DNA of 64,000 nucleotides. It comes from Leptospiraceae bacterium. Lineage in GTDB: Bacteria; Spirochaetota; Leptospiria; Leptospirales; Leptospiraceae. The position numbers were made by a program, and so were the translations under genes. Positions within the stretch are counted from its first letter, which is position 1; each line of letters opens with the position of its first letter. Shown in pieces: positions 53,578 through 59,122 of this stretch. A model generated the notes under the pieces. That model saw only the letters and a list, made by a program, of their open reading frames with translations, had not been told where the DNA came from and made no database searches. The stretch is from assembly GCA_022402465.1 (NCBI GenBank), contig JAKRSH010000014.1, positions 1-64,000 on the forward strand. The letters run 5' to 3'.

Positions 53578-54387
53578 ATGAGTCTGAATAAAACCTTCTA
53601 TTCCGAGAAAAATATCATAGTAACGGGAGCAGGCGGTGGTATAGGTTCCGAAATTTGCAGACAGCTTTCTGAACTTGGCGCCAATGTCTATTCTTGTGAT
53701 CTGAGTATTGATTTTATGAAAGATCTCAGAAAGATACAAAATGTACACACCGAGAAGCTAGATGTAAGACTTGAAAAATCTTGGCTAGCACTTCTCAAAA
53801 AGTTCTCTAAGATTCCCTTGCATGGTTTAATCCAATGTGCAGGTGTACTAAGGCCTGGCTATGTCTATGATTTTAGAAGTGAGGATATAGACTTTCATAT
53901 TGATATCAATCTTAAAGGTTTAATTCTTGGGACAAGTCTCACTTCGAAAATTCTAAAAAAGCAAAACTTTGGACATATTGTACATATTTCTTCTCTAGCT
54001 GGGCTAGCTCCCATTCCAGGAATGAGTTTGTATTCTGCTTCGAAATTTGCAGTGAGGTCTTTTTCGCTGGCTACAGCCCAAGAATTGAAACCTTTTGGAA
54101 TCACTGTATCTGTCATCTGCCCTGACGCCGTTCGCACTCCCATGCTGGATCTTCAGAAAGATAAAATTGAAGCTGCTTTGACTTTTTCAGGAAGCACCTT
54201 GGACACGAAAGAAGTTGCAGAGGTTGTTCTTTCCTCTTTCACTCGTCCCAAATTAGAAATTGCACTCCCACTCTACCGAGGAATCTTTGCAAAAGTCGGA
54301 AATCTTATTCCCTCTTCCAGTGCATTTTTATACCGACTAATGATTCGATTAGGCATCTCAGGACAGAAGAAATATCAAATTCGTTGA
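53578..54387 (+). CDS. short-chain dehydrogenase/reductase
   Basis: The 269-residue protein has the SDR cofactor motif VTGAGGGIGSEICRQL (T16-G23), the segment LIQCAGVL, a catalytic Ser in HISSLAGL and the YSASKFA Tyr/Lys pair. The C-terminal half (KVGNLIPSSSAFLYRLMIRLG) fits a fatty-acid or steroid-like substrate, but none can be named. It starts 51 bases after the glycosyltransferase gene and overlaps the end of the convergent DUF5009 gene by 13 bases. Confidence 0.88.
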   Translation: MSLNKTFYSEKNIIVTGAGGGIGSEICRQLSELGANVYSCDLSIDFMKDLRKIQNVHTEKLDVRLEKSWLALLKKFSKIPLHGLIQCAGVLRPGYVYDFRSEDIDFHIDINLKGLILGTSLTSKILKKQNFGHIVHISSLAGLAPIPGMSLYSASKFAVRSFSLATAQELKPFGITVSVICPDAVRTPMLDLQKDKIEAALTFSGSTLDTKEVAEVVLSSFTRPKLEIALPLYRGIFAKVGNLIPSSSAFLYRLMIRLGISGQKKYQIR

Positions 54388-55580
54388 GTAATTTTTCGCC
54401 AAATAAATGTTATGCCAATTGTAAAAAACAGATAAACCAAGGAATAGAATAATGAGTTAGCTTTTGGCTCACCAAAAATGCTCACTGTCGACAAGACAAT
54501 CTGCTTTGTAGATTTGCCATCGTGTAAGACTAAATTTAAAATCCTAGAAAATAAGCCAGTGAATACAAATACAAAGAGTGCAGATTGTCCAAGCAGTAGA
54601 ATGGGTTTCAAAATTTTTGCATCCTGCCATGATTCTGGTAAAGAATACAATATTAGAATAAAAAAATATGCTGAGGCACCAGTTACTAAAACAAAACTAG
54701 AGGACCAAAGGCTCTTGTTAATGGGAAAGACATTATGCACTAAGAAGCCTAATATTAGAAAAAATATTCCAACAAAAAAAATCTTACCAACAACTGGAAA
54801 ATATACTTTCTTCTGATTATCAGGGAATAATCGTAAAAGAAAATTCGAAATGGCTCGAATAGAACTTTGTAATTGAAATTTTTCCTTTGAAGTTAAGTCG
54901 ACATTTACTCTTTGATTTATAATGAACCATTCCGAAATCCAAATTCCCATGAGAGCGCTCGCTATGGAAGGAATCGTACTTAGAATACCTTCTGGATCCC
55001 AAACTTTGGTAATCTTCCAAAGATGTCCATTCAGCAAGGAGCGATCAATATAAGCCGCCCAATTGTAAATGGAATCATATCGAAAGGGAACATTTTGTAC
55101 AAAGTTCCAATCAGGAGGAGCTAAATATACAATCCCAATTGTATAAGACAAAAGAATACAGAGATATAAAATAAACTGTAAGCTAGAGTTTAATCTAAGA
55201 TAGATAACATAAGCAAAAAAATAAACTACACCTATTCTCTGTAATACGCCAGGAATTCGCAACTCGGACCATTGGTAATCAGGAAAACCATTTAATAGCA
55301 AACCTATGCTTATTAGAAACAAGGCCCTAAGAAATATATGAAAAAGAATTCTAGCATCCGACTCAGCTAATGATTTTCGTTTCGAATAAGCAAAAGGAAT
55401 GGATGCACCGACCGCGATTAAAAAAAACGGAAATACAAAATCAGCAGAACCCAAGCCATCCCAAGTCGCATGTTTGAAGAAGGAATAAATTTGTCCCCAA
55501 TTACCAGGATTATTCACGATCACCATCCAAAATACTGTGAACCCGCGGAAGAGATCTAAACTTTTATTTCTAGGTTTCAA
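54375..55580 (-). CDS. DUF5009/heparan-alpha-glucosaminide acetyltransferase-like membrane protein
   Basis: The 401-residue protein has about 10 membrane helices and the COG4299/DUF5009 opening SLDLFRGFTVFWMVIVNNPGNWGQIYSFFKHATWDGLGSADFVFPFFLIAVG. Eukaryotic relatives use acetyl-CoA to acetylate a terminal glucosamine across a membrane. The bacterial members probably acetylate a cell-surface sugar. The convergent SDR gene overlaps its last 13 bases. The upstream side opens into the decaying region at 55.6-58.3 kb. Confidence 0.82.
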   Translation of the reverse strand: MKPRNKSLDLFRGFTVFWMVIVNNPGNWGQIYSFFKHATWDGLGSADFVFPFFLIAVGASIPFAYSKRKSLAESDARILFHIFLRALFLISIGLLLNGFPDYQWSELRIPGVLQRIGVVYFFAYVIYLRLNSSLQFILYLCILLSYTIGIVYLAPPDWNFVQNVPFRYDSIYNWAAYIDRSLLNGHLWKITKVWDPEGILSTIPSIASALMGIWISEWFIINQRVNVDLTSKEKFQLQSSIRAISNFLLRLFPDNQKKVYFPVVGKIFFVGIFFLILGFLVHNVFPINKSLWSSSFVLVTGASAYFFILILYSLPESWQDAKILKPILLLGQSALFVFVFTGLFSRILNLVLHDGKSTKQIVLSTVSIFGEPKANSLFYSLVYLFFTIGITFIWRKITQRI

Positions 55581-55826
55581 TGGAGGTTATCCTCTTCATA
55601 AAGGTTTTCTAATGCAATGATAAATCACAGCATTCCATTTGAATGAACAATTATCAAGTAATAGTTTACTTCTAAAAGATTGTTTGGGCGCCTTCTGCCT
55701 TGTTAAAACCAGGGGCTATAAGCTTGATTCTTCTTCGTTGAATAGAAAATGGAAGCTAACATAGAATATGCGGCAATTTGGCATCTAGCTTGCATAGTTT
55801 AAGTTCCCCCCCCCAACGAGGATTTG

Positions 55827-55903
55827 CCCTTTCGAGCCCAAACGACATGGTTGTCGTTTCTCGCACTTTGGAACACGATGTTCCAGAGTGCGACGAGAAA
55901 GGG
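55827..55903. repeat. nested inverted repeats forming a three-way junction
   Basis: Outer arms CCCTTTC (55827-55833) and GAAAGGG (55897-55903) enclose two hairpins. One is AAACGAC/GTCGTTT (55840-55859). The other has TCGCACT/AGTGCGA outside TGGAACA/TGTTCCA (55861-55893). All arms are perfect. This could be a folded single-strand recombination site, a mobile repeat or a structured RNA; no homology was recognised. Confidence 0.85.
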
Positions 55904-55981
55904 TAAACCGAGATCTTGTTCGCAAGCAGTGGTAAGAACAATCCGTCCTCCTACTCTTGAAATATGCGAATCCATCACTAC

Positions 55982-56015
55982 CCCATCACCATTTTCTATG
56001 AAAAATGGTGATGGG
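55982..56015. repeat. 14-bp perfect inverted repeat
   Basis: CCCATCACCATTTT and AAAATGGTGATGGG pair perfectly around a 6-base loop (CTATGA). There is no T run on either side, so it is not a standard terminator. It lies 79 bases after the three-way structure and just downstream of the broken gene at 56057. Confidence 0.8.
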
Positions 56016-56056
56016 CAAAGTCGCTGCGGATACAATCACTTCAACCAAACCTGCAT

Positions 56057-56848
56057 TCAATAAGGATTCCGTTTCCCTTTCAATTCTGGCAATTCGTCTA
56101 TTTGTTTTAAAATCTCCTCATAGCTTCCCCAACCTTTGCGTCCCATATAATAATCGGAAGTACATAGAGGCATATTCTTCTCGCCAGGATATACCTCTAA
56201 GACTTTCAATTGGATTGCAAAGATATTCCCAAATAAGGTAGTCGGTTTGAGCGGATGATAGGTTTGCATTGCATCGATGATCTTATCCTCTTCTTTGAGC
56301 TCTATATCATAACTAATAATTTTTTTAAATTTAATAACAATTTTGATATTCATCATATTATTTACAGCATTATAAGGTGCATCGAAGTAGGTGAGCTTCA
56401 TCTTTTTTATACGCGCATAACGGGTGTCAATTTTTCCGTCAAACTCACAGTAATTTTTGAAGTAAAATTTAAAATAATCTTTCAAGTCGGTTGGTATTTG
56501 TCTGGATTCTCTAATATCATCATCGTAAAAATCATGTGTATAATCAGCCGATACATAGATAGCTGGTTGTGTTCCTTGCCAATTGCTCACAAACCAACGC
56601 CGCCTATCGCCTGATTTTTCGATTATTTCAGCTTTATCTTCGTATTGTAATATTCTTTTAAAAGTGCCCTCTTTAGTTTAATAATTTGTTATATAAAATA
56701 AATCGGCTTCTAGAGAGGTAATTAATGTTCCAGTCATAAAGCCATTATTGTGATACTCTATCTTTTGTTTAACTTTTTCTAGATCTTGTGTATCTGTTGT
56801 AAAGAGTAAATTTACAGATAAAATAAAGAATAATACAGCTTTTTTCAT
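56057..56848 (-). pseudogene. secreted protein gene with one internal stop
   Basis: An ATG at 56848 begins a signal peptide (VLFFILSVNLLFT), and the same frame continues to a TAG/TAA-type end at 56057. It is interrupted once by TAA at 56678-56680 after residue 56. Without the stop it would be a 263-residue exported protein with segments such as YEDKAEIIEKSGDRRRWFVSNWQGTQPAIYVSADYTHDFY. The downstream 177-residue part is open from 56590. No family was recognised. A single nonsense mutation, an assembly error or a short exported peptide would each explain it. Confidence 0.65.
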
Positions 56849-57223
56849 TTATTTTTTCTCCAAAACAGTAGACCATCGGTTTCCACGTTCGAAATTTGTT
56901 CAGGCATTTTGAGAATGTATATCATTGCCGTAGGATTGAATCCTACAGTTTCCCTCAAATCAATTCCATCAACAACAATACACCATCCTACCTTTTTTAC
57001 ACTAGATTTTTATGTTCATGCTCCCAATCCACTACTTCCATAAATCATCTTCACAGATGGATTAGTTTTTGTGAGGATAAGTCACAACCTAATAACTTTT
57101 TTCTACGAAAAATGCTGTAAGGTCAGGCAAAGCTCAAGGTAGTAGAATATTATGCGAGGCAAATACGAATTATCTAACCTTCTAAAACTCTTCATTAACT
57201 TTTTCGGCTAGGAGAATCTTAAT
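56849..57223. other. 375-base stretch without a recognisable gene
   Basis: I see no gene, terminator or repeat of note. It separates the broken secreted-protein gene from the dead antitoxin gene. The open frame at 56896-57120 has no ribosome site and no protein-like composition. Confidence 0.4.
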
Positions 57224-57442
57224 TTAAGATTGGTATGGAACATCGTTTTTGTTTGCTAATATTTTAAGCCTTTCTAACAAAGATTCAGGAAGTCGTAAAG
57301 AAATCATTTTGTTTGTTGGTTTTAAATTCGGGAATGAAACTTTTTCTAACTAATTAAAGTTAAAATAATCTGTTCCATCATTATTATCCCAGAACTTTAC
57401 ATCTTCATCTGAATTTTTGAATTTAGGTATTTTTTTGGTCAA
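57224..57442 (-). pseudogene. brnA: BrnA-type antitoxin remnant
   Basis: Reading leftward from a TTG at 57440-57442 that overlaps the end of brnT, the frame encodes KIPKFKNSDEDVKFWDNNDGTDYF. It then has one in-frame TAG, then SFPNLKPTNKMISLRLPESLLERLKILANKNDVPYQS and a stop at 57224. The second part is the ribbon-helix-helix domain of BrnA antitoxins, which normally continues a few residues (LIKIFL-like) after YQS. The internal stop and the early end mark it as inactive. Confidence 0.8.
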
Positions 57443-57738
57443 TATTTTTATAAAGATTCCGTTCTTTCTTACTCATATCTTGAGCAGAAATAATTCTAAT
57501 TTTACTTTTTCGAATCGTAAAAATGACAAATAATTTTCTACCCTCATTGGTTATTCCTAGAGCAGCAAATCTAAATTCATTTTGGGAATGAGTTTCATCT
57601 GCACTAACCAAAAATGATTCGTTAAAAAATTATCTCTTCTATCTCACCTGGTTTGACCTTCTGACTAATCCAATTCTTATCAATGTTTCCTTTATCCCAG
57701 TCAAATCCATCGATATTGGAAAAATTTAGAATCTTCAT
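57423..57738 (-). pseudogene. brnT: BrnT-type toxin gene with frameshift
   Basis: An ATG at 57738 starts KILNFSNIDGFDWDKGNIDKNW, a BrnT N-terminus. The frame ends at a TAA right after a six-base T run (A run 57624-57629 on the plus strand). Removing one T joins it to FNESFLVSADETHSQNEFRFAALGITNEGRKLFVIFTIRKSKIRIISAQDMSKKER, the conserved BrnT core with its Arg and His/Lys active-site region. BrnT is a ribosome-dependent or RelE-like ribonuclease toxin. The gene order toxin-antitoxin is normal for brnTA. The break sits in a homopolymer, so a sequencing error is possible. Confidence 0.82.
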
Positions 57739-58282
57739 TTATATTTATAAGATATACAACCGAATCTTTTCAATCATCACTTTTTTTGTCATCCTAAGGG
57801 TGCTTGCGAAAGAAGATAATGGATCACCTTGCACTTCGTTATACTATGATTTAACTTTAGGCTCAACAAAGAAACTCCTATCCCTTCCGTAATCGAAAAA
57901 CCACTTGATTCCAGGTTAGTTTCTACTCCTGTCTTGAATGGATTGTATCATACTTATTCTTAGCAAAAAATAGCTAAAATTTTTACCTTAAGGAAACAAT
58001 CTTTTGTTAACCAAAAATCTACGAGGAAGCTATATCCGTGCAACTTGAGAAGTCTGCAAAATGGCTCTTTTTTCCTAATTTTTCTTTTTAAAAGTCTAAA
58101 CTTTTTAAAGAATTCAGTTTATTATCTTTCTTAACTGTAACTTCCATCAAATATCATGAACACTTGATTCGCTTTATTATTTTTTGTAATATTCAGTCAT
58201 TCAGCACCATTTCTAACGCTCAATCTTCACTTCGCTAAATGGTGTTGGATGCTGGGCTTAGGCTCACAGGTAGCTTGTCACA
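57739..58282. other. 544-base gene-free stretch
   Basis: No coding sequence with a ribosome site was seen. Near its right end CACCATTT (58205-58212) and AAATGGTG (58237-58244) form an inverted repeat. The following GGTGTTGGATGCTGGGC is like ATGGTGCTGGGTGCTGGGC at 28-46 near the window start. The rest is AT-rich. Confidence 0.4.
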
Positions 58283-59122
58283 TCAGAAAAGGCTAGATCT
58301 TCTATCTTCGTCTTGCTTTTCCCATTGGAATATGGTTTCACGTAGTTGGGGAGTTGCACCTTCAACAGTGGCAACTAAAGTAGATTGATTGAGTGTTGCA
58401 TTTCGGTGGGATTTACGCAGAACGTATTTTCCACATTTGATAACTTCGATGACATGTTTCTTGAAAGGATCTCTTTCCTTTTTGGAAAGTTCTTGCAGGG
58501 AATAGTAAAATGTTGTAAGACCTTTGTAGTACCAATCCATTTGCTCACAACTTCCAGTTGGCCAGAGATCTTCTAGCAAGAATTCTGGATCTTGGATTAA
58601 GGATTTGCCTTGGAATGGTTTTTGTAAGAGTCTGCAATGGAAGTAAATTTCAAAATCTAAATTACGATCCTTGCCAGCTTCGAAGTCAACTTCTATCCAT
58701 CGTATCCATGATTTCTTTTCTTCCTTAGTAAGCATAGGAATGAGTGCGAATAAATATGCTTGTTCACGAAACAGACGTTCTACGGAAAAATATTGAAATA
58801 TCTCCAAGGGAATAGTAAAATGATTTTTCTTCCATTCAATTACGTACGGAATGTTCTTGACATCTGTATATTCAGGAGGAGTCTCTATGGATGTTGTATC
58901 TCCGAATTGAGTGATAATAAAAATTAAAGATAATAATTCTTTTTTACTTAGGCTCTCTAAAATACTATGAACTCCGCCTTTTTCCACTAAAGCTCTGAAG
59001 ATCATTCTTTTCTGTTGTAGTGCTGGTTGGTGAGGCGATAAAATAATACCTAGATGCTTCTCGAAACCTCTTAAGGATTCCCGTTCAAATCGTTCAACAT
59101 TCCCAGCTATAGCAAACGGCAT
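58283..59122 (-). CDS. conserved hypothetical cytoplasmic protein
   Basis: The 279-residue protein has no signal peptide or membrane segment and is rich in charged helices (ERESLRGFEKHLGIIL, MIFRALVEKGGVHSILESLSKKELLSLIFIITQFG). It has scattered cysteines (HCRLLQ, GSCEQMDWYYKG, VIKCGKY). I recognise no family. It begins three bases after the purD stop, so it is in the valS-purD transcript. Its operon position and intact length suggest a real but unassigned gene. Confidence 0.72.
   Translation of the reverse strand: MPFAIAGNVERFERESLRGFEKHLGIILSPHQPALQQKRMIFRALVEKGGVHSILESLSKKELLSLIFIITQFGDTTSIETPPEYTDVKNIPYVIEWKKNHFTIPLEIFQYFSVERLFREQAYLFALIPMLTKEEKKSWIRWIEVDFEAGKDRNLDFEIYFHCRLLQKPFQGKSLIQDPEFLLEDLWPTGSCEQMDWYYKGLTTFYYSLQELSKKERDPFKKHVIEVIKCGKYVLRKSHRNATLNQSTLVATVEGATPQLRETIFQWEKQDEDRRSSLF

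What the first reader, a model, noticed from the sequence alone, without database searches (positions are those of the whole stretch)
55827..56015. Nested perfect palindromes in gene-free DNA
A three-way-junction fold (outer 7-bp arms and two inner hairpins, one with 14 paired bases) is followed by another 14-bp hairpin. Such folded repeats are typical of single-strand recombination sites or transposable repeats. No transposase gene was seen nearby.
Basis: seen in the sequence. Interest (0 to 1): 0.5.

Follow-up and report, generated by a model that had tools for sequence, protein, structure and literature searches.

The report
Mosaic palindromes beside orphan toxin genes
The folded DNA is a worn copy of a palindromic repeat seen in this genome but in none of the relatives searched; its sister copies, and other palindromes like it, tend to lie where the start of a bacterial toxin gene meets its toxic end, so they may help join new toxin ends to gene starts.

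Summary
The palindromes are real at the stated coordinates and fold far beyond shuffled DNA (z -7.7 and -6.7 as RNA, -8.1 as DNA). They are multi-copy: 11 loci of the own genome, window included, carry pieces of two cloverleaf elements, A (103-104 nt) and B (102 nt). None of 60 other genomes searched matches.

5 of the 11 loci lie within 5 kb of Rhs or similar toxin-like genes, where 1.4% of the genome does (copies not independent). A leader found six times (79-99% identical) is followed by A, or by other palindromes, F or G; A against F/G is near shuffled identity, F against G weakly alike. F or G is read in frame into an Rhs core in 6 of 6 cassettes checked; A/B into a downstream gene in 2 of 5.

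The window copy is a relic: A cut in a hairpin loop, fused to B, beside a broken gene and a separate hairpin; no toxin tip, no common leader.

No integron boxes (0 of 11 loci), no integron integrase above cut-off; the genome's two Y1 transposase genes have other palindromes. It works somewhat like Rickettsia palindromic elements; membership is not shown. A joining role is inference.

The parts
55817..55918 (-). Element B, 102 nt, cloverleaf (outer stem 55827-55833/55897-55903; inner hairpins 55840-55859 and 55861-55893)
   Evidence: One of 5 full B copies (plus 3 half copies) in the genome; aligned; folded (z -5.8).
55919..55952 (-). Left fragment of element A, cut inside the loop of its first hairpin and continued by B
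   Evidence: Matches the left end of other A copies; the joint lies in A's AGGAC loop.
55982..56015 (.). D-like hairpin, 14 perfect pairs, 6-nt loop
   Evidence: 90% match at G000:C40:70977-71024; looser look-alikes of the CCAGCACCATTT type elsewhere in the genome.
55799..56035 (-). 78-aa open frame through the D-like hairpin, A fragment and B; 43 of 48 residues equal to the in-frame linker of the C33 toxin-like gene; no toxin tip follows
56057..56839 (-). Broken gene (one internal TAA), 70% identical to the intact 258-aa gene L018:5282-6055, which directly follows a gene with a weak C39-peptidase-like match; read as an immunity-type gene (inference)
   Evidence: (PF13529, 22.9 bits, just below its cut-off of 24).
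55703..55783 (.). Stretch shared with the flank of the C24 copy (..AAACCAGGGGCTATAAGCTTGA..GCGGCAATTTGGCA)
   Evidence: Seen by eye; no separate search made.

Best explanation
The window holds a worn copy of a mosaic palindromic repeat. Shown: in this genome palindromes of several sequence families (cloverleaves A and B, and the 84-nt hairpin elements F and G) lie at or next to the 5' ends of truncated Rhs and other toxin-like genes; F and G sit in frame between a leader and the Rhs core, and the same leader is also followed by A. Inferred: they act as portable joining modules. The palindrome folds, breaks or switches template at a hairpin loop and, together with homologous recombination between the repeated leaders and cores, joins leaders to new toxin tips; because the modules are mostly free of stops the fusions can stay readable. 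The window copy (A fragment joined to B, D-like hairpin, broken immunity-type gene, no tip) would be the relic of such a cassette.
For: 11 loci carry A/B pieces. 5 of 11 lie within 5 kb of an Rhs-core gene or of the second toxin-like family, against 1.4% of the genome (binomial P 2.6e-7). Six leader copies, 79-99% identical, are followed by A (2), F (2) or G (2); A against F or G is 47-55% identical (shuffled 47-49%), F against G 62-65% (shuffled 49-50%). Read-through in frame into the core or toxin-like gene: 6 of 6 F/G cassettes, 2 of 5 A/B cassettes (C21-A, C33). The three A-B joints (two sites in A, one in B) fall in apical loops, which are 10 of 104 nt in A and 7 of 102 nt in B. Hairpin 1 of A has two forms, GCGAAC..GTTCGC and GCGAC..GTCGC: pairing is kept although length and frame change. 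The listed named Rhs matches (10 listed of 42 records, Leptospira plasmids) begin at residue 29 of the query, where F ends.
Against: No recombinase, nuclease or transposase has been tied to the elements. Copies share flanks, so counts are not independent, and the two joints in A may descend from one another by a deletion between CAGGA repeats; shared letters leave joints uncertain by a few bases. 3 of 5 A/B cassettes are not in frame (C15, C36-A, C17). Only 4 of the 8 in-frame cassettes have the common leader, and neither of the two leader-A copies (C24, C36) reaches an Rhs core in frame. The window lacks the common leader (alignment scores 19-21, shuffled maxima 22-29). C35 shows no toxin-like gene in the 4.1 kb read, where its contig ends (by eye). 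F and G fold less convincingly (z -1.8 to -3.6). D-like hairpins also lie beside ordinary genes.
Confidence: 0.4

Rival explanations
1. Selfish palindromic elements (Rickettsia-palindromic-element-like or MITE-like) inserted into tolerant spots; orphan toxin cassettes tolerate them, and copies spread further when cassettes are duplicated. No role in joining.
For: Multi-copy, palindromic, about 100 nt, several families, in-frame fusions in part, as passages of PMC10969869 describe for Rickettsia elements. Half-B plus its AT-rich tail is flanked by 15-nt direct repeats ACAACCGCCCGCACT in C30 (by eye). Shared flanks of several copies fit spread by duplication.
Against: No empty site or constant target duplication found; in the 11 loci no A/B copy was seen inside an ordinary gene (by eye, ORF lists); three palindromes behind one leader is more than random insertion would easily give.
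Confidence: 0.36
2. Site-specific folded-strand recombination sites (attC-like) used by an unrecognised recombinase to swap toxin cassettes.
For: Different sequences with like folding behind one leader; a shared right end ACAACCGCCCGCAC joined to Rhs tips, D hairpins and another toxin-like gene (by eye); four reading frames with tyrosine-recombinase matches in the genome.
Against: 0 of 11 loci have attC boxes; no integrase above the TIGR02249 cut-off; the element lies inside the reading frame in 8 of 11 cassettes checked and not behind each gene.
Confidence: 0.07
3. RNA-level signals: terminators or translation controls of toxin cassettes (the conserved leader holds its ribosome site in the loop of a hairpin).
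For: Strong folding; arms GGTCAATAAATTG..CAATTTATTGACC around the ribosome site and start codon of the leader (by eye; arms checked). Six T follow the right end of A in C24 and C13, and six T start 11 nt behind B in C33, C25 and C30. The terminator scan finds hairpin 1 of A in C24.
Against: F and G, and A/B in C21 and C33, are read through in an open frame. The terminator scan finds none in window 55500-56300 and 2 against 0.9 expected by shuffling in L015 3600-4400. No Rfam family reaches its gathering score in window 54300-58400.
Confidence: 0.13

Closest known systems
Rickettsia palindromic elements (RPE)
   Same: Palindromes of about 100-150 bp, several families per genome, in-frame fusion with reading frames in part (passage of PMC10969869).
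   Different: Here near toxin cassettes and their joints, not in unrelated metabolic genes; no sequence comparison with RPE was made.
Orphan rhs-CT/rhsI modules
   Same: Truncated Rhs core plus variable tip; rearrangement by homologous recombination is reported in Salmonella (passages of PMC3967940).
   Different: The Salmonella orphan lacks translation initiation signals; here six leader copies have a likely start site, and a palindrome lies between leader and core in four.
REP/RAYT systems
   Same: Dispersed palindromes; this genome has two Y1 transposase genes with palindromes of their own beside them.
   Different: A and B are longer cloverleaves, unlike those palindromes, and not found beside the Y1 genes.
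Integron attC sites
   Same: Palindromic, sequence-variable, able to fold as single strands (recalled description).
   Different: No R boxes, no integron integrase above cut-off.

Membership tests
Rickettsia palindromic elements | Palindromic elements of about 100-150 bp in several families within one genome | tested here: met
   A 103-104 nt, B 102 nt, F and G 84 nt; RPE described as about 150 bp, ten families, in a passage of PMC10969869.
Rickettsia palindromic elements | In-frame insertion into reading frames | tested here: inconclusive
   6 of 6 F/G and 2 of 5 A/B cassettes in frame; no empty site to prove insertion.
Rickettsia palindromic elements | Insertions in unrelated metabolic genes | tested here: not met
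   No A/B copy seen inside an ordinary gene in 11 loci, by eye on the ORF lists.
Rickettsia palindromic elements | Sequence relation to known RPE | not tested
   No RPE sequence was compared.
Integron attC | RYYYAAC and GTTRRRY boxes at the ends (recalled consensus) | tested here: not met
   0 of 11 loci.
Integron attC | Integron integrase in the genome | tested here: not met
   Best TIGR02249 match 93 bits, cut-off 265.
REP/RAYT | Same palindrome next to a Y1 transposase gene | tested here: not met
   Two Y1 genes; longest A/B match in the 5 kb around each is 12 bases.
MITE | Terminal inverted repeats with target-site duplication | tested here: inconclusive
   Outer arms present; 15-nt direct repeats only around half-B plus tail, seen by eye.
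Orphan rhs-CT cassettes (sister loci) | Truncated Rhs core followed by a variable tip | tested here: met
   8 TIGR03696 matches on 4 contigs; truncated cores with palindrome in front read. One core (C44:52161) lies at a contig end and may belong to a full gene.
Orphan rhs-CT cassettes (window copy) | Rhs core or toxin tip downstream of the palindrome | tested here: not met
   The frame stops at 55799 and no Rhs or toxin-like sequence was seen behind it.

The most novel reading that the evidence does not exclude
Folded palindromes of different sequence are interchangeable in-frame docking sites: a dedicated enzyme recognises their shape, cuts at hairpin loops and splices a standard leader to new toxin tips, a toxin-diversifying system outside integrons.
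Probability: 0.1. Interest if true: 0.8.

Novelty: new variant of a known kind. Interest (0 to 1): 0.42.

Why it matters
In the Salmonella case seen here, orphan toxin tips reach a usable gene start by recombination over a long homologous stretch (PMC3967940). Palindromes at the joint, in frame for F and G, three kinds behind one leader, and A-B joints in hairpin loops would suggest a second, testable route and a reason why such loci rearrange.

Tried and rejected
attC membership and REP/RAYT membership failed on tested features. Rfam gave three matches in window 54300-58400, all below their gathering scores. No match in plasmids, in viral contigs by patterns of A and B or in genome contigs by the A pattern (records near this genome may be left out). 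A genome-contig scan with the right-flank protein gave 19 pattern stretches and no relative. In 6 relatives of the family the right-flank gene (58283-59122) and purD are side by side; the left-flank gene was not found in the 3-9 kb read there, and in the 4 relatives that have a match it lies on another contig (in the fragmented assemblies this is weak evidence). So the repeat probably sits at a synteny break, and no empty orthologous site could be read. I thought at first that the window carries the common leader; the alignment test did not support it. I took the two joints in A as independent at first; a deletion between CAGGA repeats can turn one into the other. On checking I found my statements that no T run follows A or B, and that sister copies of this repeat are mostly in frame, to be wrong; they are mended and the confidence of the joining reading was lowered from 0.45 to 0.40.

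Paper searches (listings seen, with only the first rows of long ones) showed no title or abstract opening describing palindromes at Rhs cassette joints; one search returned 0 papers. I saw passages only of PMC3967940, PMC10969869 and PMC12306157; all other papers as listings.

Full report
Observation.

Copies. BLAST of window 55800-56040 finds 17 matches in the own genome (3.99 Mb, 45 contigs), including the query itself and its own hairpin in reverse. They fall at 12 contig places; 11 hold pieces of elements A or B and one (C40) only the D-like hairpin. A query from the C24 copy finds the A loci again and several D-like or leader matches. B has 5 full and 3 half copies; the other 3 of 11 matches in that call are two 21-base pieces and one weak match. 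None of 60 other genomes has a match, nor plasmids, nor viral contigs by pattern, nor genome contigs by pattern.

Anatomy. Read on the strand opposite to the window, A is a 103-104 nt cloverleaf (outer stem of about 12 bp, hairpins of 8 and 13 bp; the shorter variant has one pair less) and B a 102 nt cloverleaf with the larger hairpin first; 5 of 5 A and 4 of 5 B copies show both inner hairpins, C15 being the exception (z -3.8 to -7.3 for A, -4.4 to -7.6 for B). In the window, C33 and C25, A is cut in the loop of hairpin 1 and continues as B; in C35 and C15 it is cut in the loop of hairpin 2; half copies of B (C36, C30, C17) begin in the loop of B's second hairpin. The first two joints share CAGGA and may be related by deletion. 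Hairpin 1 of A occurs in two lengths with pairing kept; with five full copies this is slight evidence for structure.

Surroundings. Rhs-core genes occur at 8 places on 4 contigs and a second toxin-like family at 3 places. Of 11 A/B loci, 5 lie within 5 kb of one of these (C33, C25, C36, C24, C21) where 1.4% of the genome does. C15 and C17 also run into an Rhs-like end NRPHLYVEGNPVGFRD that the family search did not list. C13 lies beside a gene with a weak C39-peptidase-like match and its partner, C30 beside toxin-like genes by eye only, the window beside a broken copy of the C13 partner gene, and C35 beside genes that look ordinary, at a contig end. That these genes are toxins and immunity genes is inference from Rhs architecture and gene order; of 10 sister-locus proteins or pieces scanned per call few matched anything: NCBIfam matched 2 of 10 (both Rhs_assc_core), Pfam matched 2 of 10, both below cut-off.

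The leader. An exact 24-base search of 28 own-genome stretches finds a leader six times, on four contigs. It is 172-178 nt as cut, with a GGAGG ribosome site in five of six (GAAGGTAG in C44) and a likely GTG or ATG start between hairpin arms of 13 bases (by eye; arms checked). The leaders are 79-99% identical, yet are followed by A (C24, C36), F (C24, C36) or G (C21, C44); A against F or G is 47-55% identical (shuffled 47-49%), F against G 62-65% (shuffled 49-50%). Behind the palindromes comes an Rhs core cut at different points: YTGQEEDRESGL, YYDAKIGRF, GRGNVLAGG, GGAQGEEG or RPHLYVEGNP.

Frames. I checked 11 cassettes in which a downstream core or toxin-like gene could be named. The six with F or G are all read through in frame (four with the common leader, C21-F and C24-F2 without). 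Of five with A or B, C21-A and C33 are in frame, both without the common leader; C15, C36-A and C17 are interrupted by a stop in the AT-rich tail behind B or half-B. Not among the 11: C24-A, C13, C30 and the window, where no downstream core follows directly, and C25 and C35, whose contigs end just behind. So a complete leader-A-core gene was not seen.

The window copy. It has the A fragment, B and a frame equal at 43 of 48 residues to the C33 linker, but not the common leader (scores within the shuffled range) and no tip. Its D-like hairpin resembles C40's and more loosely a CCAGCACCATTT hairpin found also beside ordinary genes.

Terminator reading. Six T follow A directly in C24 and C13, and start 11 nt behind B in C33, C25 and C30; the window has no run of four T within 30 nt behind B. 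The scan finds no terminator-like site in window 55500-56300 and two in L015 3600-4400 against 0.9 expected.

Mechanism. Shown: multi-copy cloverleaves, nearness to toxin-like cassettes, three palindromes behind one leader, F/G in frame, joints in loops. Inferred: breakage or template switching at loops plus homologous recombination between leaders and cores makes new fusions. That DNA palindromes form hairpins and cruciforms and are break hotspots is said in the abstract openings listed (PMC3315005, PMC4245961); rhs orphans recombine with main rhs genes in Salmonella (passages of PMC3967940). Closest in behaviour are Rickettsia palindromic elements (passage of PMC10969869). Integron and REP/RAYT membership fails on tested features; RPE membership fails on gene context and was not tested by sequence.

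Verdict. A real repeat family, seen only in this genome so far, with an unusual place; the window copy itself is a decayed example. New variant of a known kind, interest 0.42.

Noticed in passing
window 56928-56946: Small palindrome GTAGGATTCAATCCTACGG, the same letters as one beside the Y1 transposase gene at G000:C42:230192: a likely REP of a RAYT-type pair.
   Followed up: partly
window 57224-57740 (-): Broken frames that look like a BrnT/BrnA toxin-antitoxin pair (recalled resemblance, no family search made).
   Followed up: no
L013, L015, L097, L098, L099: Six similar leaders with ribosome site and start codon between the arms of a 13-base inverted repeat, four of them ahead of in-frame orphan Rhs genes; possible control of toxin translation.
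   Followed up: partly
window 58190-58260 and L101-L105: CCAGCACCATTTAGCG..AAATGGTGCTGG-like hairpins dispersed beside ordinary genes.
   Followed up: partly
G000 contigs C25, C35, C33, C30: Contigs end close to the copy (C25, C35) or are only about 6 kb long (C33, C30); the repeats may have broken the assembly, so copies may be missing.
   Followed up: no
L099, G000:C44:48772-49014: A further Rhs core with a stop just in front of it; no A, F or G noticed in the 330 nt before it (by eye).
   Followed up: no
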